Source of the DNA: Actinopolymorpha alba DSM 45243
Lineage (GTDB): Bacteria; Actinomycetota; Actinomycetes; Propionibacteriales; Actinopolymorphaceae
Length of the DNA stretch: 64,000 nt
Assembly (NCBI RefSeq): GCF_000373925.1
Contig: NZ_KB892746.1
Coordinates: 62,001 to 126,000 of the forward strand
Direction of reading: 5' to 3'
In this document: piece after piece, positions 35,676 through 46,195 of the stretch
Position numbering within the stretch: position 1 is the first letter of the stretch
How the letters are laid out: every line of letters starts with the position of its first letter
The notes under the pieces: generated by a model
Told to the model about the DNA's origin: nothing
Database searches by the model: none
The model's input: the letters and a program-made list of their open reading frames with translations, nothing else
Program-made: the position numbers and the translations under genes

Positions 35676-36524
35676 ATGACGAACCAGGTAACCGACGAGT
35701 ACCGCCGTACCAGCTACGAGATCTCGCAGACGATCGCGCCCGGCTGGGAGCGCTGGCGATCGCGGTTCGAGACGGTTGTGGCGCCGGTGCGCGAGTGGAT
35801 GGTCCGTGAGCTGGCCTCCCCTCGCGGGGCCACCGTGCTCGAGCTCGCCGCCGGGGCAGGCGACACAGGCTTCGAAGCTGTCAGGGCGCTCGGCGGGGAC
35901 GCCCGCCTGATCTCGACCGACTTCTCTCCGGCGATGCTGGACGTGGGCCGCCGCCGGGGTGCCGAGCTCGGAATCAAGAACGTGGAGTTTCGCGTCTTGG
36001 ACGCCGAATACCTCGGTCTCGACACCGATTCGGTCGACGGCGTCCTCTGCCGGTTCGGTTACATGCTTATGGCGGATCCCGCCGAAGCGTTGCGCGAGAC
36101 GCGCCGAGTGCTTCGCCCCGGCGGGCGGCTGACCTTGGCGGTGTGGGGAGCTGCCGAGCGCAATCCATTCTTCACGGTCATCGCCTCGACCCTTGTCAAA
36201 GGCGGGCAGCTGCCGGCCCTTCGCGAGGGGGTTCCTACGCCGTTCAGCATGGCGAGCCCGGTCCAAACGAAGGCTCTGCTCGAGGCCGCCGGATTCAGGG
36301 TGGTCAAGGTGGAAGAGGTTCCGCTTGAGTTCCAGTTCCGCGACGTCGATGACTATCTCCGCTTCATGGCCGACACCGCGGGCCCCCTCGCCGTCGCACT
36401 GCGGAAGCTGCCGCAACCTGAAGGCAAGGCTGTTGCGGCCGGCCTCGAGAACGCCCTCGGCATTTTCGAGACCGGCGGCGAGTACAAGATTCCTGGTATC
36501 GCTCTTGTCGCTGCCGCGAGCTGA
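35676..36524 (+). CDS. Class I SAM-dependent methyltransferase
   Basis: A 282-residue methyltransferase. Motif I is VLELAAGAGDTG, the acidic residue ending strand 2 is in LISTDFSPAML, motif II-like VLDAEYLGLDTDSVDGV and the post-motif RVLRPGGRLTLAVWG are in order. It belongs to the UbiE/COQ5-like group; the acceptor is unknown. It faces the SnoaL-type sigma gene, which may control it. The stop codon lies inside a 28-base tandem duplication. Confidence 0.85.
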   Translation: MTNQVTDEYRRTSYEISQTIAPGWERWRSRFETVVAPVREWMVRELASPRGATVLELAAGAGDTGFEAVRALGGDARLISTDFSPAMLDVGRRRGAELGIKNVEFRVLDAEYLGLDTDSVDGVLCRFGYMLMADPAEALRETRRVLRPGGRLTLAVWGAAERNPFFTVIASTLVKGGQLPALREGVPTPFSMASPVQTKALLEAAGFRVVKVEEVPLEFQFRDVDDYLRFMADTAGPLAVALRKLPQPEGKAVAAGLENALGIFETGGEYKIPGIALVAAAS

Positions 36525-36555
36525 GGGGGGCCCGATCGCTGCCGCGAGCTGAGGG
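36508..36555 (+). repeat. 28-base tandem duplication over the methyltransferase stop
   Basis: The segment cgctgccgcgagctgaggg occurs at 36509-36527 and again at 36537-36555, a period of 28 bases. The first copy encodes the last codons and stop; the second lies just outside the gene. Confidence 0.6.
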
Positions 36556-36572
36556 CCCCGAAAACGTGTCGA

Positions 36573-37465
36573 TCAGTGTTCCCCGCGGGCGAGGATGCTG
36601 CGACGGTACGCGCGGGGAGTGAGGCCGGTGTGCTCACGAAAGACGGTGGCGAAGTGTTGGGCGGAGGAGAATCCGAGGTCGACGGCGATCTGAGTGATCG
36701 TCCGGTCGGTTTCGGCTAACAGGACCTCGGCCCGCCGGGTGCGTAACTGCCGCTGATAACGCGCCGGGCTGAGCCCAATCTCCGCCGTAAACAGCGTGGT
36801 CAGGTACGTCGGTGACATGCCTACCGTGCGAGCGAGTTGGGCGAGTGGCAGGCGTTCGGTGTAGGCCTCGTCGATCAGGCGTCGGGCATGGGCCACCGCC
36901 GGGTGCGGCAGCCGGCGATCGACGCCACCCTCACCTGCGAAGAGACGGGTCACCTCGATGAGCAGATGTTGCGCGGTGAGTGTGAGGCCTTCGGCGCGCG
37001 AGTGCCGCGTGGTCAGGACTTCGCGGAGAAAGGCCTCGAACGGCGGGACCGCCGTGCCCGCGCCGGGCACATGCGGGGCACGGCGCGCCGCCATTGGTCG
37101 GCCACTTCTGGAAAACGCTCGAGTAGCGGCGCGATATCGAAGGCCGCGAACAGAAAATGCCATTCGGACGCGGCCGGGCACACCATGTGGTGGATCGTCC
37201 CGGGTGGTACGACGAGGAGCTCGTGACGGTCAACGACGTACTCCTCCTCGCCCACCAGCCACCTGGTCGCCGGGCCGCTGAGCTGCAGGTACAGCTCCCA
37301 CACGTCGTGGCGATGGCGACGGATGAGGAATGACGTCGGGGCCTGCTGGTCGCCGGCGTGGACGAGTCCCGCGACGCCAGCTCGGTCAAGGTGGGCGTGG
37401 AAGCCGGCGCGCAGGCCAGCCGGGCGTACGACATCATCGGTCACCTGAAGATTCTGTACGTTCAC
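36573..37465 (-). pseudogene. AraC-family regulator split by a frameshift
   Basis: Two overlapping minus frames make one AraC protein. From GTG 37465 (or GTG 37444) one frame gives the cupin sensor (FLIRRHRHDVWELYLQLSG, VVDRHELLVVPPGTIHHMV, then LLERFPEVADQWRRAVP). The other frame takes over near 37080-37090 with PGAGTAVPPFEAFLREVL and runs through two helix-turn-helix motifs (PLAQLARTVGMSPTYLTTLF and TITQIAVDLGFSSAQHF) to the stop at 36573. A one-base indel joins them at the linker. It may be a pseudogene or a sequence error. It is divergent from the PhyH gene 51 bases away, the expected target. Confidence 0.75.
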
Positions 37466-37516
37466 TGAGTCGATTGTGAACGCCTGAGCGGCAAGGTTCG
37501 GCGTACCGTCGGCACC

Positions 37517-38404
37517 ATGACGACCGCTGCGAAAGAGTTCCTCGAGCATCACGCCGACCTGCTCCCCACGGAGGAGGATGTGGCGTTCTTTGTCAACCAT
37601 GGCTACTGGATTTCGCGGCCAATCCTGCCACCCGCCGTCCTCGACACGGCCGAGCGCGGGATGAAGCGGTTCTATGCCGGCGACCGTGACCAACTGCTGC
37701 CGGGTGGTCGTGCCCACGGCGGTTGGACGCCCGAGCATGGTGACGTCCTTCGTAAGAATGACTACGCGTCCCTCGTCGTTGACGAACTCGCCACGCTGGT
37801 GCGGCATCCGTTGATCGCGGCCTGTGCCGCCCGGCTCTCCGGTGCTGATGAGATCCGGTTGTGGCATGACCAGTTGCTCTACAAGCCGGCGGAGCGTTCC
37901 CTTCCGGAAGGCGGGAAGGTCAACGTCGGTTGGCACACGGATCGGCAGTACTGGCGTACGTGTGCCAGCGCCGACATGGTGACGGCGTGGGTGCCGTTCC
38001 ACGATGTTGGCGAGCAGAACGGCGCGGTGTCCTTCGTGGACGGTAGCCACCGTTGGGACGACGACGTGGTCCTCGACTTCTTCAACCCGGACCTGTCAAC
38101 CCTCGACAACGTTCGGGATCGGCACGAGGTGTCGGTGGTCGTGGCCGAGATTCCCCGCGGGGCGATGAGTTTTCACCACTGCCGCACTGTGCACGGCAGC
38201 GGGCCCAACCTCGCTGACTATCCGCGACGGTCGATCGCCATTCACCTGCAGCCCGGTGACAACCACTTCGTCGAGCACCATGGTGCCGATGGCAAACAGG
38301 CTTGGCACCCCAACGATGAGTACGTCACGCGCACGAGCGACGGCCACCCCGACTACACCGACCCGCTCCTGTGCCCACGCCTCTGGCCGCCCCCCGTCGG
38401 GTAA
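37517..38404 (+). CDS. Phytanoyl-CoA dioxygenase (PhyH) family protein
   Basis: A 295-residue Fe(II)/2-oxoglutarate oxygenase. The iron motif is in VGWHTDRQYW (HxD), the distal His and 2-oxoglutarate Arg are in CRTVHGSGPNLADYPRRS. Family members hydroxylate small molecules or sugars-linked compounds; the substrate here is unknown. Location next to an AraC/cupin regulator is typical for sugar- or ectoine-type catabolic enzymes, but no other pathway gene is adjacent on this strand. Confidence 0.85.
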   Translation: MTTAAKEFLEHHADLLPTEEDVAFFVNHGYWISRPILPPAVLDTAERGMKRFYAGDRDQLLPGGRAHGGWTPEHGDVLRKNDYASLVVDELATLVRHPLIAACAARLSGADEIRLWHDQLLYKPAERSLPEGGKVNVGWHTDRQYWRTCASADMVTAWVPFHDVGEQNGAVSFVDGSHRWDDDVVLDFFNPDLSTLDNVRDRHEVSVVVAEIPRGAMSFHHCRTVHGSGPNLADYPRRSIAIHLQPGDNHFVEHHGADGKQAWHPNDEYVTRTSDGHPDYTDPLLCPRLWPPPVG

Positions 38405-38462
38405 CGCTGGCGTGTCGGTGCCCACCTGGCGGCATTCGGACGATGGCGTCACCCCAGCCACC

Positions 38463-39494
38463 TCACTGGTTGCGTTGGCGGAACACCGCGAGCGCCGCGG
38501 CGACGGCAGGAATGTCGAAAGCGTTCACCTCGTCGAGGACCACCCGGTGATCCTCAGGGATACCCGCCATGCCGGCGTAAGCACCGCAGATGCCACCGGC
38601 GATCGCCCCGATCGTGTCGGTGTCACCGCCAAGGTTCGCCGCCAGTAACGACGCGCGGATCGGGTCGCCACCGCTGAGCGCCACCAGGGCGAGCGCTACA
38701 GGCACAGTCTCCGTCATCGCGACGCCCGCGCCGAGGAAGTCGTACAGATCCTCCAGGACCTCCTCGACCGTCCCTCCGGCCGCCACCCGCCGCAGCGCCC
38801 ATTCGGTCCTCCGCCGCAGCGAAGCGCCTGGCACCGGATTTCCTCGAAGCAGGCCCAATGATCCCGCCTCGTACGCCGCGGCAAACACCTCGTCCAACCC
38901 TCGCGCCGTAAACGCCACAGAGAGAGCGGCCGCGACCATCGAGGCGCCAGCGATAGCGATCGTCGTACGGTGCGACACCGCGCACGCGGCTTCGACGCGG
39001 TCCACCAGGGCGACCAGGTCGTTCGGCGGGCTGATGATGCCGACCGGTGCGATCCGCATGGCGGCGCCGTTCGTGTCACTGCGTACGCCGATCTGCTGCA
39101 GTGGTGCTCCCGCTCGCAGCGCCTCGATGGCGCGCGCTGAGTTGGGCCCGAGGAAATGACCTTCGCTGGCGCCCACGCGGTCCGCCCAGGCGACCAGATG
39201 CCGCGCGATCACCGCCGGCTCGACTCTGCCACCGGACTCGATGATCGCGCCGGCGAGCATCAGGGTTTGTTGGGTGTCGTCGGTGACCTGCCCGGCCGCG
39301 TAGCCGTCCACGATGAAATGACCAGGAGGGCCGGGCAGGAAACCAGTGATCTCACCGAAGTGTTCGCGGATCTGCTGCCTCGACCACAGTTCGCCCGGCA
39401 TTCCCATGGCATCGCCAAGAGCCACGCCGTACAACGCGGCTGTCGCCTTGCCGACGACCGCGGCGTCCGGCCCATCCTTCACCAATTCAGACAT
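38463..39494 (-). CDS. ADP-ribosylglycohydrolase family protein
   Basis: A 343-residue DraG/ARH-fold enzyme. The metal-binding residues are visible in QVTDDTQQTLML near the N-terminus and GGDTDTIGAIAGGICGAYAG near the C-terminus. Family members cleave N- or O-glycosidic bonds of ADP-ribose or related ribosides. The start ATG 39494 overlaps the EcfT stop by one base (TGATG); an upstream start at 39515 would lie inside ecfT. Last gene of the ECF-transporter operon, so the natural substrate is probably a ribosylated compound imported by it rather than a protein (inference). Confidence 0.85.
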   Translation of the reverse strand: MSELVKDGPDAAVVGKATAALYGVALGDAMGMPGELWSRQQIREHFGEITGFLPGPPGHFIVDGYAAGQVTDDTQQTLMLAGAIIESGGRVEPAVIARHLVAWADRVGASEGHFLGPNSARAIEALRAGAPLQQIGVRSDTNGAAMRIAPVGIISPPNDLVALVDRVEAACAVSHRTTIAIAGASMVAAALSVAFTARGLDEVFAAAYEAGSLGLLRGNPVPGASLRRRTEWALRRVAAGGTVEEVLEDLYDFLGAGVAMTETVPVALALVALSGGDPIRASLLAANLGGDTDTIGAIAGGICGAYAGMAGIPEDHRVVLDEVNAFDIPAVAAALAVFRQRNQ

Positions 39495-40306
39495 CAGAAC
39501 CCCCAGGATCCCCACCTGATCCGCAGCGCCACCACCGCACCTAGCACCACCGTCAACGCGGCCACAGCCACCCAGTCTCGGGCCCGCATCCGGATCTCGT
39601 ACAGGCTGGCGACCTTACGACTGGCGCCGTACCCGCGATTCAGCATCGCGGCGGCGAGATTGTCAGCCATGCGAAGGCTTTCGGCAAGCAGCGGCACCAT
39701 CACCGGAACAAAGGCCCGGACCCGACCGAGCATTCCACCACGTTCGAGCCGCGCGCCCCGCGCACGTTGGGCGTCCTGGACCTGCTCAGCTCTCCGGTGC
39801 ATCGTGGGTACGAATCGCAGAGCGGTGACGACCAGGAACGTCAATGGGTAGGGCAACCGCGCCTTGCGCATCAGCTGGACGATTCCGTCGATCGGCGTAC
39901 TCACCGTCAACGCCGTCGTCAAGGCCACCATGCCGAGGAGGCGAAGCGCGAGCGTGCAGCCGGTGAGCAGTCCACCGACGGTGAACGGGAGATGGTCGGT
40001 GCCGGGCACGAGATGGAAGAGAACGCGCGCCGCCGACCCGTCGAAGCGAGCCGGTCCGTAGCTAACCGCCGACAGCACCGGAATGAGGACGAGCAAGGGC
40101 AGCAGGGGTACGACGACCGGCAGCAGCCGCCGGTGCGACACCTTCGCCCACGCACAGAGTCCGAACGCGATCACCACCAGGACAAGGTTGGCCAGCGGAT
40201 GCGCGAACAGGAAGAACGCGACGACGCCGACCGCGAACGCCAGGAGTTTCGGGCGCGGGTCGAGCCGGTGCGGCAGCGTGTCGGCCGGCTGATAGTCAGC
40301 GAGCAT
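39494..40306 (-). CDS. ecfT: ECF transporter transmembrane (T) component
   Basis: A 270-residue CbiQ-type membrane protein with about five to six helices. The two coupling-helix motifs that dock the ATPases are represented by AQRARGARLERG and the later LNRGYGAS. It scaffolds the S component and the ATPase pair. The start ATG 40306 overlaps the end of the ATPase gene by 11 bases. Third to last step of the operon; its 3' end touches the ADP-ribosylglycohydrolase start. Confidence 0.9.
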   Translation of the reverse strand: MLADYQPADTLPHRLDPRPKLLAFAVGVVAFFLFAHPLANLVLVVIAFGLCAWAKVSHRRLLPVVVPLLPLLVLIPVLSAVSYGPARFDGSAARVLFHLVPGTDHLPFTVGGLLTGCTLALRLLGMVALTTALTVSTPIDGIVQLMRKARLPYPLTFLVVTALRFVPTMHRRAEQVQDAQRARGARLERGGMLGRVRAFVPVMVPLLAESLRMADNLAAAMLNRGYGASRKVASLYEIRMRARDWVAVAALTVVLGAVVALRIRWGSWGF

Positions 40307-42128
40307 CCGTACTCGCCAACAGATCCGTGAGACTCGCCGCGAGCGACGCGACGTCGAGCGTTGCCGGATCCACCGCGTCAGGTCGTCCGGCGGCGGTGAG
40401 CTTGTCCGCAAGGGTGCCTGCGAGCCGCGTGATCGGCGGGACTTCCAGACAGGCCCGGCTCAGTAGGTCAGGCTGGGCGAAAAGGTCTCGCGGGGTGCGG
40501 TCTGCCGCGAGCCGCCCGTCGACGAAAACGCATACCCGCTTCGCATGTCGCGCCACCAACGACATGTCGTGCGTGATCAGGACGACCGTGTGGCCCGACC
40601 GGTGCAACTCATCGATGAGCCCCATCATCGATCGCGTACCAGCGAGATCCTGTCCTGTGGTGGGTTCGTCGATGACCAGGATGGATGGCGACAACGCCAA
40701 AACCGAGGCGACGGCAAGGCGCTGCCGTTGTCCCTTGCCGAGCCGGAACGGATGCCGGTCCGCGACCGTCGACAGCCCGACCAGTTCCAGGACCCGTGCG
40801 ACCGATTGGTCGATCTCGTCCTCAGGTGCGCCCTGCTGGCGTAGGCCGTAGGCGACCTCCTCCGCAACGGAGGAGCAGAAGATCTGGTGATCGGGGTTCT
40901 GGAAGACGTACCCCACCAGGCGGGCGAGCTCGCCGACCGCGCGGCCCGCGATGTCCTCACCGGCGACGCGGACGCTACCGGCGCTTGGGCGGAGCAGGCC
41001 GTTGAGGTGCTTGGCGAACGTCGTCTTGCCGGCACCGTTGCCGCCGACCAGCGCGACGAACTCCCCTTGGTCGATGGTGAGATCGACGTCGGCCAATGCG
41101 GTCACACCAGGGGAGTACGTGTGCGTGAGGCCCGCGACCTCGATCGCGGGCGTGGTCGGTGGTGGCGTACGTACGTCGGCCGGCCGCCGCGGCGACGTGT
41201 TGGCCGCCGGGGCCGGGACGGCCGGTTGCGCCGGGATGGTCGAACCAACGGCGAGTCGAGGTAAGAGCACCCGCTCGGCGTCGGCGAGGGTGAAGGGTAG
41301 GTCGTCGGCGGGCAGCACTCCGCTGGCCACGAGCCGCCAGCCGAGTTCGGTGACCTGCGGGGCAGGCAACCCCAGACCACAAACCCGATCAGGGTCGCGG
41401 TACAGCTCACGCGGTGTCCCCACGAAGGCGACCGCGCCCTCGCGTACCACGACCACGAGATCGGCCCAGCCGGCAATCAGGTCCGGATCGTGTCCGACCA
41501 GCACGATGGTGCGCGCCTGCTCCCGGGCGAGTCGGCGTACGAGATCGACCACCGTGGCCGCGCCGGCGGGATCGAGTTCGGACGTTGGCTCGTCAAGCAC
41601 CAGGACCCGCGGCTCCATCGCGAGGATCCCGGCGATCGCGAGTCGCTGCGACTCGCCACCCGACAGCTGGTCGGTGGGGCGCGTCGCGAGATCCGACAGC
41701 CCGACCATCGCGAGGGCCTCGTCAACGCGTCGACGTACAACCCCGCGGGGGCAACCGAGATTCGCCGGTCCGACCGCCGCATCCTCCTCGACCGTACGGC
41801 CGGTGAGCTGCGTTTCCGGATCCTGCATCACCAGTCCGACGTCGCGGACGATCTGCGGCACCGTCTCGCGCGCGACATCGTGGCCGGCGACCCGCACCTG
41901 CCCGGTGAGCCGGCCTTCGTACAGATGCGGGATGAGGCCGTTGAGCAGCATGCAGAGCGTCGTCTTGCCCGCGCCGGTCGGCCCTGTGATCGCGATGCGT
42001 GCGCCTGCGGGAAGCCTGAGGGTCACATCTCCCAAGGCGGGTTGCGCGGCGTGTTCGTAGGTGAACGACACGCGGTCCAACACGACGATGTCCGTTGCCG
42101 CTGTGTTCGTGGTGACCGCTGGGTTCAT
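40296..42128 (-). CDS. ecfA: ECF transporter fused ATPase (A-A' in one chain)
   Basis: A 610-residue protein with two complete ABC domains. Domain 1: Walker A GPTGAGKTT, signature LSGGESQRLAIAG, Walker B VLVLDEPTSELD. Domain 2: Walker A GGNGAGKTT, signature LGKGQRQRLAVAS (a Lys replaces Gly of LSGGQ), Walker B ILVIDEPTTGQD. Between them is a Pro/Ala-rich linker. In most ECF systems EcfA and EcfA' are separate genes; fusions occur in actinobacteria. ATG 42128 overlaps the stop of the preceding gene (ATGA). Confidence 0.92.
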   Translation of the reverse strand: MNPAVTTNTAATDIVVLDRVSFTYEHAAQPALGDVTLRLPAGARIAITGPTGAGKTTLCMLLNGLIPHLYEGRLTGQVRVAGHDVARETVPQIVRDVGLVMQDPETQLTGRTVEEDAAVGPANLGCPRGVVRRRVDEALAMVGLSDLATRPTDQLSGGESQRLAIAGILAMEPRVLVLDEPTSELDPAGAATVVDLVRRLAREQARTIVLVGHDPDLIAGWADLVVVVREGAVAFVGTPRELYRDPDRVCGLGLPAPQVTELGWRLVASGVLPADDLPFTLADAERVLLPRLAVGSTIPAQPAVPAPAANTSPRRPADVRTPPPTTPAIEVAGLTHTYSPGVTALADVDLTIDQGEFVALVGGNGAGKTTFAKHLNGLLRPSAGSVRVAGEDIAGRAVGELARLVGYVFQNPDHQIFCSSVAEEVAYGLRQQGAPEDEIDQSVARVLELVGLSTVADRHPFRLGKGQRQRLAVASVLALSPSILVIDEPTTGQDLAGTRSMMGLIDELHRSGHTVVLITHDMSLVARHAKRVCVFVDGRLAADRTPRDLFAQPDLLSRACLEVPPITRLAGTLADKLTAAGRPDAVDPATLDVASLAASLTDLLASTDAR

Positions 42129-42904
42129 TGTGGGCGTTCCACGAACCGCCCGACGACCTGGACTGGCAGGCTTGCCCGCAACGCTTTCAGGGACGCGACC
42201 AACGTCTCGGGGCCGGCGACGAGCACGCAGCTGGCCGGACCGCCGGACCGACGCAGGTCGACCGGTGTGTCGGCGTTCAGCTCGACGTCCAAGCCGGCTG
42301 ACGCGGCGAGGTCGTGTAACTCAGCGGCGACACCGCGCGAGCCGACCGGCAGCATGTCGTGAACGCCAGTCAGGCGGCCCGTCGCGAGTACCTCCGCGAC
42401 ACTCACCTGGCCCGGATGGCCCTGGTAGATCTTGTCCTCGGGGGCCGAGAGCGGCAGACCGAGCAGGATGGCGCTGTCACCGGGCCGTGCCTCGCCCGGG
42501 CGCAGGTCATCAGGGTGCGCCAGCCCGATCACCGTGACGCCGACGCCGGTCTGGGCGACGGGGACGTTCTCCTCGGTACTCCCGGTCAAGGCCTCCGGAT
42601 CCGTGAGCCCGACGTCGGTGAGCAACTCGCGCATGGCCGCGATGATCGCTCGACCGGTCGGCTCCATCTCGACACTGAGTGTGTTGACGACCAGGACGGG
42701 CCGCGCGCCCGCGGCGAGTATCTCCAACAATGGAACGCGTAACGCGAAGTGGCCACACGTCGCGGGATCGGTCCGATAGACGTCGTGGGGTTTGTCGCCG
42801 ATCGCGCCCAGCGAATCACAGGCCACCACCATCACCTGGCCAGGTGTGAGGGGAACGACGGTCAGATCCCGAACGGCTCGCCGGCCGCCGGCGTTGTCAT
42901 GCAC
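42125..42904 (-). CDS. PurM/ThiL-like (AIR synthase-related) protein
   Basis: A 259-residue protein with the AIR-synthase N-terminal fold: VVACDSLGAIGDKP carries the Asp and Gly pattern that binds ATP-Mg in PurM, ThiL and HypE, followed by a helix-rich part (ALRVPLLEILAAGARPVLV) and a shortened C-terminal domain. It is shorter than ThiL or PurM (about 320-350), so the C-terminal part is reduced. It might phosphorylate or activate the compound imported by the ECF transporter (inference). The start is GTG 42904, four bases after the S-component stop; an upstream start would overlap that gene. Confidence 0.7.
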   Translation of the reverse strand: MHDNAGGRRAVRDLTVVPLTPGQVMVVACDSLGAIGDKPHDVYRTDPATCGHFALRVPLLEILAAGARPVLVVNTLSVEMEPTGRAIIAAMRELLTDVGLTDPEALTGSTEENVPVAQTGVGVTVIGLAHPDDLRPGEARPGDSAILLGLPLSAPEDKIYQGHPGQVSVAEVLATGRLTGVHDMLPVGSRGVAAELHDLAASAGLDVELNADTPVDLRRSGGPASCVLVAGPETLVASLKALRASLPVQVVGRFVERPQ

Positions 42905-42908
42905 GGGA

Positions 42909-43466
42909 TCAGCCGTTGCCGTTCCGGCGTTCGCCCACCAGACCTCCACGCGCGAGGACGGAGTACGCGGCGGAAGCGATCACCACGTTGGCAGTGGCGC
43001 CGACCAGCAGCGGCACCAGCAGCGCGATCGCCGGACCCGCACCGATGAACGGCATCACCACCACAATGCCGGCGATCGCGTTGAGGGCGATCGCGACGAC
43101 GGCCGCCAGAATCAGGAAAGTCCTGCGCGCCAGATATCCGAACGCCACCACTGAGACCGGCATGACGACGATCGCCACCAGCAGGTGGACGGGCAGGCTG
43201 AGGGGAAAGCCGGTGGTGAGCGCGCTCGCCAGGTGACCGATCCCACCGACGATGGCGCTCGGCAGACCACCGAACGCCACGCCGGCGAAGAATCCGGGAG
43301 CGCTGTCGAAGGCCACCGTGCCGGTCGGGCTGGGAATCTTGATCAACGCGCCAACCGCGCTGAGCGCGATGAGGATGGCCATCCGCGCGATCTGACGTGG
43401 CGCGAAAATGCCTTTGCCGGGGCGGGATCCGCCAGTCGGAGGTGCGGTCTCGGACGCGTCTGCCAT
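42909..43466 (-). CDS. ECF transporter substrate-binding (S) component
   Basis: A 185-residue integral membrane protein with about six helices and the S-component features: a short cytosolic N-terminus, RMAILIALSAVGALIKIP in helix 1, the small-residue pattern AFGGLPSAIVGGIGHLASAL, and a final Arg/Asn-rich tail. The ligand is unknown; the sequence is not obviously BioY, ThiT or RibU. First gene of the operon. No cobalamin or TPP riboswitch fits into the short gap upstream (43467-43551). Confidence 0.85.
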   Translation of the reverse strand: MADASETAPPTGGSRPGKGIFAPRQIARMAILIALSAVGALIKIPSPTGTVAFDSAPGFFAGVAFGGLPSAIVGGIGHLASALTTGFPLSLPVHLLVAIVVMPVSVVAFGYLARRTFLILAAVVAIALNAIAGIVVVMPFIGAGPAIALLVPLLVGATANVVIASAAYSVLARGGLVGERRNGNG

Positions 43467-43551
43467 GAGGGAGTTCTCCGTCCACAGTCAGGCGGCGTTG
43501 TTGATCGCCTAGACGATCCCCGAGACTTCCCAGGCAGTCAAGGGCTTCCCT

Positions 43552-44235
43552 CTACTCTCGTGAGGAGGTGCCCGGGTCCGCGGATGTGACGGGAGCCAGC
43601 AACAACCCGACGATCGCGTCGATCAGTCCGGTCGCCAGCTCCTGCCACGTGGTGCTGGCTGGTGGGGTTCCGTCAGCCAGGGCGCGTTCGTGGTCCGCAC
43701 ACATGTGCACGATCAGGTGACGCGCCATCTCGCCGCGTTGGAGACGTACCTGGAACGGCAAGGCTGGAAGGCTGTGGTTGAGCCCGTCAAGAAGCTCTTG
43801 CAAGGGTGGAGCGCTGAGTGCCTCGTCAATCATGATGGCGCGGAGTGCGGGGTCGGTCATCACCTGGGCGCCGAACCGCGCGTACCACGTGGGACTTCCC
43901 AGCGTGGCAAGGTGCTCGGTGACCGGGCGTACGAGACAGGCCACCCAGTCCCGCACCTCCGCACTGTCGCCGAGCTTGGCCAACATCCGCAGGCGAAGCC
44001 GTTCGATCCGCTCGTCGTGCTTACGCACGATCGCACGCACCAGGTCCGCCTTGGTGCCGAAGTGATAGCCGACGGCGAAGTTGTTGCCCTGTCCCGCGGC
44101 CTCGCTGACCTGGCGGTTGGACACCGCGAATACGCCGTGCTCGGCGAACAGGCGTTCCGCCGCGGTCAGGATCAGGTCGCGGGTCGCGCCACTCCGCTCG
44201 GCGCGCACGGACCTGATGCTGCTCGGCACGGTCAC
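43552..44235 (-). CDS. TetR family transcriptional regulator
   Basis: A 227-residue regulator with an N-terminal helix-turn-helix (AAERLFAEHGVFAVSNRQVSEAAGQGNNFAVGYHFG) and a helical ligand-binding domain. The start GTG 44235 overlaps the P450 stop as GTGA, so both are translated from one message. A downstream GTG at 44229 is an alternative. It probably represses its own operon, through the AGTCAA repeats upstream of the P450 gene. Confidence 0.88.
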   Translation of the reverse strand: MTVPSSIRSVRAERSGATRDLILTAAERLFAEHGVFAVSNRQVSEAAGQGNNFAVGYHFGTKADLVRAIVRKHDERIERLRLRMLAKLGDSAEVRDWVACLVRPVTEHLATLGSPTWYARFGAQVMTDPALRAIMIDEALSAPPLQELLDGLNHSLPALPFQVRLQRGEMARHLIVHMCADHERALADGTPPASTTWQELATGLIDAIVGLLLAPVTSADPGTSSRE

Positions 44236-45452
44236 CACCGCACCGGAACCTCGCGTAGCCCGCCGACGATGAGTCCCTCCACCCGGTGCAGGTCTTCCGC
44301 CGCGACAGCGAGTTCGAGAGAGGGAAGCCGGCGCAGCAGAACGTCGAGCACCGTCTGGAGTTCGGTGCGGGCAAGTGTTTGGCCAAGGCAGGAGTGCGGT
44401 CCGGTGCCGAAGGCCAGATGGGGATTCGGGTTGCGGTGAAGGTTCATCTCGTCGGCGTCGGCGAACGCGCTCTCGTCGCGGTTGGCCGCGCCCATGTTGC
44501 ATACGACGGTGGTGCCGCGGGGGAGCAGGGTGCCGCCGACTTCGACCTCGTTGGTGAGATACCGCGGCATTCCGAATCCTGCGTTGGCGTCGAACCGCAG
44601 CGCTTCCTCCACGGCCGTACGAATCAGCGATCTGTCCGCGAGCAACTGCTCCCACCGCTGCCGGTCGGCCAGCAGCATCGCCACCATCTTCCCGATCATG
44701 TTCGTGGTGGTCTCGTGTCCGGCGACCAACAGACCCTGGCCGGTGGCGACGAGTTCCTCCTCAGACAGCCGGCCACCGGCAGGATCGGTCGCGTTGATGA
44801 GTTCGCTGAGCAGGTCCTCGCCCGGCTCCGTACGCCTGACGGTGATGTGCCCGCGCATGTACGACAGGAACTCCGCCTGTGCGGCGTCAACCTCAGCTTG
44901 CGTATACCTGGTGAGGTTCAGCAGGGTTTCGGACCAGTAGGTGAATCTTTCCCGATCGGTGTCCGGAACGCCGAGCAGGTCACAGATCACCCACACCGGC
45001 AGCGGAAAGCCAAGGCGCGCCCTGAGATCCGCTGGACAACCGTCTTCCAGAAGCTCATCGATGAGCCGGTCGGTCATCGCCTCGATCTTCGGTTGGAGAG
45101 CGGTCATCCGCTTGACGGTGAACCACTTGACGACCATTCGCCGCCACCGCAGGTGCCCCTCGCCGGTCTGGGAGATCGATGACGCGAGCGTGCTGTTGAA
45201 TGGTCCGCCCGATTCGTTGGTGGAGATCCGGGCTGCGTCGTCCGCGTCCAGTTGGCGGGTGAATCGCGGATCTGACAAGACCAACTTGACATCGTCGTAG
45301 CGGGTGAGGAGCGATGCCTCATCACCGCTGGGCAGGCGAATCGCGGCAACCGGACATTCCTGCCGTAATCGCGCCCATTCGGCCGGCGGCTCCAGGGCCG
45401 CATCGCTGGGAATCGGGTAGTTAAGTACCTGTCCGTTGTCGTCCTGGCTCAC
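44232..45452 (-). CDS. Cytochrome P450
   Basis: A 406-residue soluble actinobacterial P450. The oxygen-binding I-helix is VAGHETTTN, the K-helix ExxR is EALR, and the heme-binding loop is FGTGPHSCLGQTLAR with the Cys thiolate. The start GTG 45452 is chosen for family length. No ferredoxin or reductase is encoded next to it, so partners come from elsewhere. The substrate is unknown; co-translation with a TetR regulator suggests xenobiotic or secondary-metabolite induction. Confidence 0.92.
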   Translation of the reverse strand: MSQDDNGQVLNYPIPSDAALEPPAEWARLRQECPVAAIRLPSGDEASLLTRYDDVKLVLSDPRFTRQLDADDAARISTNESGGPFNSTLASSISQTGEGHLRWRRMVVKWFTVKRMTALQPKIEAMTDRLIDELLEDGCPADLRARLGFPLPVWVICDLLGVPDTDRERFTYWSETLLNLTRYTQAEVDAAQAEFLSYMRGHITVRRTEPGEDLLSELINATDPAGGRLSEEELVATGQGLLVAGHETTTNMIGKMVAMLLADRQRWEQLLADRSLIRTAVEEALRFDANAGFGMPRYLTNEVEVGGTLLPRGTTVVCNMGAANRDESAFADADEMNLHRNPNPHLAFGTGPHSCLGQTLARTELQTVLDVLLRRLPSLELAVAAEDLHRVEGLIVGGLREVPVRW

Positions 45453-45488
45453 TGTGACACCCCCGGAGGCCAAGCTGCGATTGCGTCC

Positions 45489-45528
45489 AGTCAAGTCCGC
45501 CCGCGAAGTTAAGTCAACCGCCTGACTT
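45489..45528. promoter_or_regulatory. Repeated AGTCAA half-sites upstream of the P450-TetR operon
   Basis: Half-sites agtcaa at 45489-45494 and 45512-45517, and the inverted form tgactt at 45523-45528; the last two make an aagtca-6-tgactt dyad (45511-45528). It is 60-75 bases upstream of the P450 start, where a TetR-type repressor would bind. Confidence 0.5.
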
Positions 45529-45640
45529 GTCCCGTACGTCGCCGCCCGGGGGCGGAGATCGGCTCCCGCTGAGACTCGCAGTAAGAAGAAGTTCTGCGTC
45601 CTCGTGAACCCGGAGGCGCTGGAACGCAACAGAGAAGGCG

Positions 45641-46195
45641 ATGGACGACGACGAGCTGGTCAGTGCCGTGGCGGGTGGTGACGACGGGGCGTTGCGCGAG
45701 CTGTTCTCGCGGCATGCGCCGTGGTTGGCTGCCCGGCTGCGTACGGTCCTGCCCGCCGCCGATGTGGAGGACGTGCTCCAGGAGACCTTCGTGGGGGTGT
45801 GGCGAGGTGCCGCGGGTTACCGGTCGGGGGGTGCCGGTGGATGGCTGTGGGGGATCGCGCGGCGGCAGGCGGCGTTGTGGCTGCGCCGCCGGGGCCATCC
45901 GGAACGGCTGGTGACCGCTCTGGTTGCGGCCGGTGAGCTGCAGCCGGTGGACCCGACGGAAGCGGCGTTGTCCCGGGCAGAGCTTGCCGCCGCCGTCGAG
46001 GCGCTGGGCCCGGAGGGCAGCCCGCAGCGGGAGACCTGGCGGCTGATGTACGTCGAGGACCGGCCGGTGGCTGAGGTAGCTGAGCTGATGGGCGTGCCGG
46101 AGGGGACGGTGAAGAGCCGCGCGTACCAGATCCGCCGGCTGATGCGCGCGGCGCTGCGACGCCACGACCCGATGCTCGAGAGAGGTGGGCGATGA
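45641..46195 (+). CDS. ECF-type sigma factor (first gene of ABC-exporter operon)
   Basis: A 184-residue minimal sigma factor. Region 2 is VEDVLQETFVGVWRG, region 4 is PVAEVAELMGVPEGTVKSRAYQIRRLMR. An AGAAGG ribosome site precedes ATG 45641. Its stop overlaps the next start (ATGA). Classical ECF genes are followed by a zinc-binding anti-sigma factor; here the next gene is an integral membrane protein without Cys/His motifs, so that protein may fill the role. Confidence 0.9.
   Translation: MDDDELVSAVAGGDDGALRELFSRHAPWLAARLRTVLPAADVEDVLQETFVGVWRGAAGYRSGGAGGWLWGIARRQAALWLRRRGHPERLVTALVAAGELQPVDPTEAALSRAELAAAVEALGPEGSPQRETWRLMYVEDRPVAEVAELMGVPEGTVKSRAYQIRRLMRAALRRHDPMLERGGR

What the first reader, a model, noticed from the sequence alone, without database searches (positions are those of the whole stretch)
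38463..43466. ECF vitamin-type transporter operon with a PurM/ThiL-like protein and an ADP-ribosylglycohydrolase
Five genes (S component, PurM-like, fused A-A', T, ADP-ribosylglycohydrolase) are joined by gaps or overlaps of 4, 4, 11 and 1 bases, so they are one unit. A dedicated importer plus an ATP-binding kinase-like protein plus an N-ribosyl hydrolase has the same logic as E. coli yegT-yegU-yegV (nucleoside-type transporter, ADP-ribosylglycohydrolase homologue, sugar kinase), but with different transporter and kinase families. Inference: import and processing of a ribosylated compound such as a nucleoside, a vitamin riboside or an ADP-ribose fragment. I know no described pathway with this gene set.
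Basis: partly seen in the sequence, partly recalled or inferred. Interest (0 to 1): 0.75.

Follow-up and report, generated by a model that had tools for sequence, protein, structure and literature searches.

The report
Predicted alpha-ribazole uptake-and-cleavage operon
Five tightly packed genes appear to import a ribose-linked fragment of vitamin B12-like cofactors, add a phosphate to it and then cut the base off the sugar, a combination that recurs in distant bacteria and hints at a job for an enzyme family of unknown role.

Summary
In detail: five minus-strand genes (43466-38463), joined by +4, -4, -11 and -1 bases, encode an ECF S component, a PurM-fold protein, fused A-A', T and an ADP-ribosylglycohydrolase (ADPRH). 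The ADPRH is 41% identical to E. coli YegU, so the yegTUV comparison has homology behind it. Of 70 named loci with the PurM-like gene, 18 have an ADPRH close by; ten keep the window's order behind a GntR gene. In three other genomes both enzymes accompany a nucleoside ABC importer instead. CobS is present in 6 of 20 ADPRH-linked genomes and 48 of 53 unlinked ones, but a kinship-controlled test is not significant. Ten ADPRH loci examined lack cobalamin riboswitches. Most likely: import of alpha-ribazole or a similar alpha-riboside, 5'-phosphorylation, then ADPRH cleavage to base and ribose-5-phosphate, the opposite fate to CobS condensation. No reaction is shown, and the substrate could have changed. 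My literature searches found no description of this set.

The parts
42909..43466 (-). ECF S component, CblT-like (185 aa)
   Evidence: PF12822 and PF07155 above cut-off; 34% over 142 aa to the S gene of the plasmid operon L092 that matches a published CblT-CblS-CobS-CobC operon; model pLDDT 89.3 with S-component fold
42125..42904 (-). PurM-fold protein, CblS-like (predicted riboside kinase)
   Evidence: PF00586; 40% to L. plantarum and 34% to Listeria CblS-position proteins; model pLDDT 90.4, nearest folds SelD, ThiL, HypE, PurL; start GTG 42904
40296..42128 (-). ECF A-A' fused ATPase (610 aa)
   Evidence: two ABC_tran domains; TIGR04521 and TIGR04520 above cut-off
39494..40306 (-). ECF T component (CbiQ family)
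   Evidence: PF02361; start ATG 40306
38463..39494 (-). ADP-ribosylglycohydrolase, YegU-like
   Evidence: PF03747, 214.8 bits; 41% identity over 324 aa, no gaps, to E. coli YegU; TDDT and GGDTDT motifs invariant in 22 operonic copies

Best explanation
An alpha-riboside uptake-and-cleavage operon. The CblT-like S with its own AA'T module imports alpha-ribazole or a related alpha-riboside of cobamide lower ligands (inferred from homology). The CblS-like PurM-fold protein phosphorylates the ribose 5'-OH with ATP (inferred; CblS is called alpha-ribazole kinase in the literature). The YegU-like ADPRH, whose superfamily cleaves alpha-configured ribosyl bonds (recalled), hydrolyses the alpha-N-glycosidic bond to free base plus ribose-5-phosphate (inferred). 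In hosts without CobS this would be catabolic; in hosts with CobT and CobS, such as this genome, it may also release dimethylbenzimidazole for reuse or limit alpha-ribazole phosphate. Shown: gene set, conservation, homology, kept metal-site motifs, genome distribution. Not shown: any substrate, any activity, or the order of steps.
For: S and PurM-like are homologous to the S and PurM genes of an S-PurM-CobS-CobC operon on plasmid pMF1298-5, which fits the CblT-CblS-CobS-CobC operon reported for that strain, and to the Listeria protein beside cobU-cobS-cobC (PMC6722938 passages). Six polar S residues (K43, D54, H78, H94, N129, N160) are kept in at least 91% of both 12 ADPRH-type and 22 cob/pair-type S proteins. 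ADPRH close to the PurM gene in 18 of 70 loci, ten in the window's order; both enzymes kept when the importer is a nucleoside ABC system (L016, L025, L047). CobS in 6 of 20 ADPRH-linked against 48 of 53 unlinked genomes. No cobalamin riboswitch in 10 ADPRH-type loci, against 3 of 7 comparison loci. ADPRH close to YegU, with metal-site motifs kept.
Against: No biochemical evidence. The CobS and CobT associations count related sequences; the independent-pairs test found no significance, and many genomes are MAGs. S proteins of ADPRH-type loci resemble each other (58%) more than cob/pair-type ones (40%), so the ligand may have shifted. 26 of the 46 rows in the branch that holds the ADPRH-linked PurM proteins have no linked ADPRH. 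The window's nearest PurM relative (L022, 64%) has neither S nor ADPRH beside it, and its genome has CobS, CobT and only weak ADPRH matches. L089 has GntR-S-AA'-T-PurM and CobS, and no ADPRH match in its genome. Transporter swaps and IunH neighbours also suit ordinary nucleosides. The host has CobT and CobS.
Confidence: 0.45

Rival explanations
1. The S/kinase pair has been recruited to another riboside (an ordinary or modified beta-nucleoside, or pseudouridine) and the operon is a general nucleoside catabolic unit: import, 5'-phosphorylation, hydrolysis.
For: BMP-type nucleoside ABC genes with the two enzymes in L016, L025 and L047, IunH in L025, and PsuG, PfkB and IunH beside the PurM-like gene in L015/L066. 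YegU-like ADPRH beside three IunH-like genes and nucleoside permeases in L108. Most ADPRH-linked genomes tested lack CobS. S of the two groups differ at many non-polar sites.
Against: Polar S residues are the same as in cob-linked S. Beta-nucleosides already have IunH or phosphorylases (recalled), so a separate hydrolase would be redundant.
Confidence: 0.3
2. Alpha-ribazole salvage for cobamide assembly (S and kinase as in Firmicutes), with the ADPRH trimming excess or unwanted alpha-ribazole phosphate or releasing dimethylbenzimidazole for CobT.
For: This genome has CobT behind a cobalamin riboswitch, and CobS. L030, L032 and L058 also have both, and L044 has CobS.
Against: 14 of 20 ADPRH-linked genomes have no CobS match. 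No riboswitch in the window.
Confidence: 0.12
3. The ADPRH removes ADP-ribose from a protein or small molecule and merely shares a promoter with an unrelated importer.
For: Family name and kept metal-site motifs; weak NCBIfam matches to DraG and Tri1, far below cut-off.
Against: Much closer to YegU (238 bits) and MJ1187 (98.9 bits) than to DraG (44 bits) or ARH3 (41 bits). It recurs with the PurM-like gene across phyla and with changed importers. I made no systematic search for ADP-ribosyltransferases in the loci.
Confidence: 0.06

Closest known systems
CblT-CblS alpha-ribazole salvage (Listeria, Geobacillus, Lactobacillus; Gray and Escalante-Semerena 2010 not read, cited in PMC6461909, PMC6167548, PMC5064896)
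   Same: Homologous S component and PurM-fold kinase, adjacent genes
   Different: Here with its own AA'T module and an ADPRH; no cobalamin riboswitch or cob genes in the window region that I recognised; most ADPRH-linked genomes tested lack CobS
E. coli yegTUV (YegT nucleoside-type transporter, YegU ADPRH, YegV PfkB kinase, YegW/GgaR GntR regulator; function stated as unclear in PMC10819704)
   Same: Importer + kinase + ADPRH; the ADPRHs are 41% identical; GntR regulator in ten related operons
   Different: MFS symporter and PfkB kinase in E. coli instead of ECF-CblT and CblS-like; no GntR gene next to the window operon, where a TetR gene lies upstream
DraG / ARH1 / ARH3 / Tri1 ADP-ribosyl hydrolases
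   Same: Superfamily and metal-site motifs; cleavage of alpha-ribosyl bonds (recalled)
   Different: Distant in sequence (about 41-44 bits for DraG and ARH3); operon with a riboside-type importer and kinase
PsuK-PsuG pseudouridine breakdown (recalled)
   Same: Kinase then glycosidase giving base plus ribose-5-phosphate; a PsuG-like gene lies near the PurM-like gene in L015 (my reading)
   Different: Different enzyme families; no PsuG-like gene recognised in the window operon

Membership tests
CblT (alpha-ribazole S component) | Sequence homology to an S gene in a CblT-CblS-CobS-CobC operon | tested here: met
   34% over 142 aa to L092 S; shared invariant D54, H78, H94, N129, N160 in 36 S proteins
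CblT (alpha-ribazole S component) | Binds or imports alpha-ribazole | not testable with these tools
   needs binding or uptake assays
CblS (alpha-ribazole kinase) | Homology to CblS and PurM fold | tested here: met
   40% and 34% identity; SelD/ThiL/HypE-like fold
CblS (alpha-ribazole kinase) | Groups with Listeria and Lactobacillus CblS in a tree | tested here: not met
   window lies in a 46-row branch (SH-aLRT 96) with both outside; quick tree, no bootstrap
CblS (alpha-ribazole kinase) | ATP-dependent phosphorylation of alpha-ribazole | not testable with these tools
   needs enzyme assay
CblT/CblS salvage system | Linked to cobamide assembly genes or a cobalamin riboswitch | tested here: not met
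   no Rfam match in the window; CobT and CobS lie about 67 kb away on the same contig
YegU-type ADP-ribosylglycohydrolase | High similarity to YegU and metal-site motifs | tested here: met
   41% over 324 aa without gaps; TDDT and GGDTDT kept (role of the motifs recalled)
DraG/ARH protein de-ADP-ribosylation enzymes | Match at curated cut-off | tested here: not met
   DraG model 72.6 of 337 bits, Tri1 63.4 of 490 bits
ECF transporter with its own module (group I) | S, A, A' and T encoded together | tested here: met
Solved vitamin S families (BioY, ThiT, RibU, FolT, PanT) | Close sequence similarity to a solved member | tested here: not met
   Foldseek 12-22% identity, best E 2.3e-3; profile matches weak, best RibU 31.6 bits

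The most novel reading that the evidence does not exclude
YegU-type ADP-ribosylglycohydrolases are alpha-nucleoside(-5'-phosphate) hydrolases. Paired with interchangeable importers (ECF-CblT, BMP/Nup ABC, YegT) and interchangeable kinases (CblS-like PurM, PfkB), they form a catabolic route for alpha-ribosides released from cobamides, the reverse fate to CobS condensation, and they would explain E. coli yegTUV.
Probability: 0.33. Interest if true: 0.82.

Novelty: new variant of a known kind. Interest (0 to 1): 0.62.

Why it matters
If true, cobamide lower-ligand nucleosides have a degradation route as well as the known salvage route, which bears on who recycles vitamin B12 fragments in microbial communities. 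It would give a metabolic substrate to a branch of the ADP-ribosylglycohydrolase superfamily and a direct prediction for the orphan E. coli operon yegTUV, whose genes are said in PMC10819704 to have no clear function. The test is compact: one importer, one kinase, one hydrolase and a chemically distinctive alpha-linked substrate.

Tried and rejected
BioY/ThiT-type vitamin importer: not supported, solved S components lie at 12-22% identity. ThiL or SelD proper: far below cut-offs. The CblT/CblS bypass of CobT as the sole role in this host: weakened, because CobT and CobS are present. Protein de-ADP-ribosylation: weak. Riboswitch control of the window operon: no Rfam match. The Pfam riboflavin-type match of S and the RibU profile match were not taken as substrate evidence. 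The kinship-controlled tests of ADPRH against CobS and against CobT did not reach significance. The original CblT/CblS paper was not held, so its content is recalled or taken from citing papers. No model coordinates were in the Python box, so conserved residues were not mapped onto the models.

Errors and limits in my scripts: the window T sequence was out of frame (corrected). In one search PurM rows were trimmed by a pattern before alignment. In one search three minus-strand S genes (L029, L036, L048) were translated on the wrong strand; they sat in that alignment but in neither counted group. In one search one G000 ADPRH paralogue (L003) was in a wrong frame. Gene labels such as BtuF, BtuC, CobD, CobU, CobS, ThiE, ThiM, PsuG and GntR are my readings of sequences; family searches checked only the proteins, and record annotation those. 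Trees are quick ones without bootstrap.
Full report
Observation. Five genes lie on the minus strand from 43466 down to 38463. Pfam assigns S (PF12822, also PF07155), PurM-like (PF00586, N-terminal domain only), a fused pair of ABC ATPases, T (PF02361) and an ADP-ribosylglycohydrolase (PF03747). NCBIfam names the ATPases as ECF ATPases and matches S with nothing.

Rarity and host. The genome has 7.98 Mb in 127 contigs. It is an actinobacterium by inference: the contig of G269, told as same phylum, has the length and genes of L066, a Euzebyaceae MAG. The PurM-like protein is found in 4 of 296 phylum genomes, the window's own included; S at E <= 1e-8 in 1 of 296, the window's own. Of 57 genomes in a search of relatives, own genome included, 5 have the PurM-like protein; none of 5 congeners and 2 further family members has it, and the other four are of the same order. 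The operon is thus an accessory trait here, probably acquired (inference).

Identity of S and PurM-like. A translated search of plasmid records with the PurM-like protein hit 7 records. On plasmid pMF1298-5 of L. plantarum MF1298 the match lies in the order S, PurM-like, cobS, histidine phosphatase, near nrdJ and a cob(I)yrinic acid adenosyltransferase gene. The paper on that strain reports plasmid regions with NrdJ, CobA and an operon of CblT, CblS, CobS and CobC homologues (PMC6722938, passages), so this is very likely that operon. The Listeria match lies beside cobU-cobS-cobC. Identities with the window: S 34% over 142 aa, PurM-like 40% and 34%. CblS is called alpha-ribazole kinase and CblT its transporter in PMC6461909, PMC6167548 and PMC5064896 (passages). 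The models are confident: S pLDDT 89.3 with an S-component fold at 12-22% identity to solved ones; PurM-like pLDDT 90.4, nearest SelD, ThiL, HypE and PurL. A profile of 36 S proteins matches RibU (31.6 bits) and FolT (24.7 bits) weakly; a profile of 22 PurM-like proteins matches an archaeal AIR synthetase (20.3 bits).

Neighbourhoods. One scan of named genomes with four PurM-like proteins gave 70 loci. In 18 of 70 an ADPRH lies close to the PurM gene: seven Bacillota, seven Actinomycetota, two Bacteroidota, one Neomarinimicrobiota and one unassigned bacterium (titles). In 10 of 70 the order is GntR-S-PurM-AA'-T-ADPRH (L024, L027, L031, L035, L039, L041, L044, L045, L054, L088; AA' is split in L054), that is seven Bacillota, two Bacteroidota and the unassigned one. 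L032 and L058 (Propionibacteriaceae) have PfkB-S-AA'-T-ADPRH-PurM. So the enzymes stay together while the transporter family changes. In three Bacteroidota-type clusters (L045, L054, L088) TonB-receptor-type genes lie downstream; in L045 both score best against the B12 receptor model, below its cut-off.

Two groups. Many other loci hold an S-PurM pair without its own AA'T, often with cobamide genes. In a quick tree of 76 PurM-like proteins all 20 ADPRH-linked rows (window and L016 included) fall in one branch of 46 rows (SH-aLRT 96), with the Listeria and L. plantarum proteins outside; inside that branch 26 rows have no linked ADPRH. Some of these are on truncated contigs: in the genomes of L081 and L028, neither with CobS, an AA'-T-ADPRH end and a T-ADPRH end lie at the edge of another contig. 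Others are real exceptions: L022, the window's nearest relative by PurM (64%), has neither S nor ADPRH beside it, and L089 has GntR-S-AA'-T-PurM with no ADPRH match in its genome.

Cobamide capacity. CobS (PF02654) is present in 6 of 20 ADPRH-linked genomes (L030, L032, L044, L058, G162 and the window's own) and in 48 of 53 unlinked ones. Fisher p = 7e-7; within the 46-row branch p = 2.4e-4. The five unlinked genomes without CobS are those of L028, L034, L066, L081 and L083. CobT is present in 4 of 19 linked and 22 of 32 unlinked genomes (p = 0.0014); the remaining genomes were not tested for CobT. These p-values count sequences. Independent-pairs tests were not significant for either gene, with too few informative pairs, and many of the genomes are MAGs. 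In the window's genome CobT lies behind a cobalamin riboswitch with CobS beside it, about 67 kb from the operon on the same contig.

Regulation. The window has no Rfam match at gathering thresholds, and none within 36000-46000 at E <= 1. Ten ADPRH-type loci, of the 18, hold no cobalamin riboswitch; one c-di-GMP riboswitch was found in L024. Seven comparison loci hold cobalamin riboswitches in three (L046, L072, L077), directly before S in L046 and L072. The GntR neighbour is a GntR/UTRA protein in L045, the one tested by Pfam. The window has a TetR gene upstream instead.

The hydrolase. It is 41% identical over 324 ungapped residues to E. coli YegU, and its best PDB sequence match is MJ1187 (98.9 bits) before DraG (44 bits) and ARH3 (41 bits). 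The TDDT and GGDTDT motifs are invariant in 22 operonic copies. In a quick tree YegU falls beside the operonic copies of L025 and L044 with support 87, which is not decisive. YegU-like relatives elsewhere sit with PfkB, a DeoC/LacD aldolase, a zinc dehydrogenase and an FGGY kinase (L106 by Pfam, L105 alike by reading), or with PfkB, three IunH-like genes and nucleoside permeases (L108). In E. coli fbaB lies beside yegT. PMC10819704 (passages) says that none of yegTUV has a clear function, and links the operon to ADP-glucose and glycogen, which is a different reading from mine.

Mechanism. Known ADPRH enzymes cleave alpha-configured ribosyl bonds, and alpha-ribazole is an alpha-N-riboside (both recalled). 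With a CblT-like importer and a CblS-like kinase in the same operon, the simplest scheme is import, 5'-phosphorylation, and hydrolysis to base plus ribose-5-phosphate. Six polar positions of S (K43, D54, H78, H94, N129, N160) are kept in both 12 ADPRH-type and 22 cob/pair-type proteins (five of them invariant in 36 S proteins), which argues for a shared ligand class; the lower overall identity between the two sets (40% against 58% within the ADPRH type) argues for some shift. The scarcity of CobS in the linked genomes argues for breakdown rather than assembly. Whether the ADPRH acts before or after phosphorylation, and whether the ligand is alpha-ribazole or another riboside, is not settled.

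Literature. Searches for YegU/YegV with ADPRH, ADPRH with pseudouridine and nucleoside, ECF with ADPRH or AIR synthase, ribazole with ADP-ribosyl and glycohydrolase, ADPRH with nucleoside transporter or PfkB, CblT with ECF transporter (12 of 13 listed) and alpha-ribazole with hydrolase terms (10 of 50 listed) showed no title or abstract start that describes this gene set; the single ribazole hit concerns sirtuins. The library holds open-licence papers only, and I did not read these papers in full.

Noticed in passing
L105 1-6463 and L106 1-5199: PfkB, YegU-like ADPRH, DeoC/LacD aldolase, zinc dehydrogenase and FGGY kinase in a row (L106 by Pfam, L105 by reading), in L105 after an ECF AA'-T end; recalls E. 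coli fbaB beside yegTUV.
   Followed up: partly
   Followed up: partly
L045, L054, L088, L103: Near the ADPRH operon lie BtuF-like binding proteins, TonB receptors, a CehA/McbA-type metallohydrolase (L045 by NCBIfam) and, in L054, an adenosylhomocysteinase; possibly a cobamide uptake and breakdown cluster.
   Followed up: partly
L061 and L065 (Cutibacterium): The CblS-like gene lies near genes that read as thiE, thiM and thiD.
   Followed up: no
L020 9919-14646 (G000:C49): Four ADP-ribosylglycohydrolase paralogues in tandem beside what reads as a sugar ABC importer in the window's own genome.
   Followed up: no
L019 5184-8835 (G000:C40): Genes that read as gas-vesicle proteins (GvpF/L- and GvpA/J-like) a few kb from CobS-CobT.
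   Followed up: no
window 43552-45629, minus strand: A TetR regulator and a cytochrome P450 gene (best NCBIfam pentalenolactone synthase, below cut-off) directly upstream of the operon.
   Followed up: no
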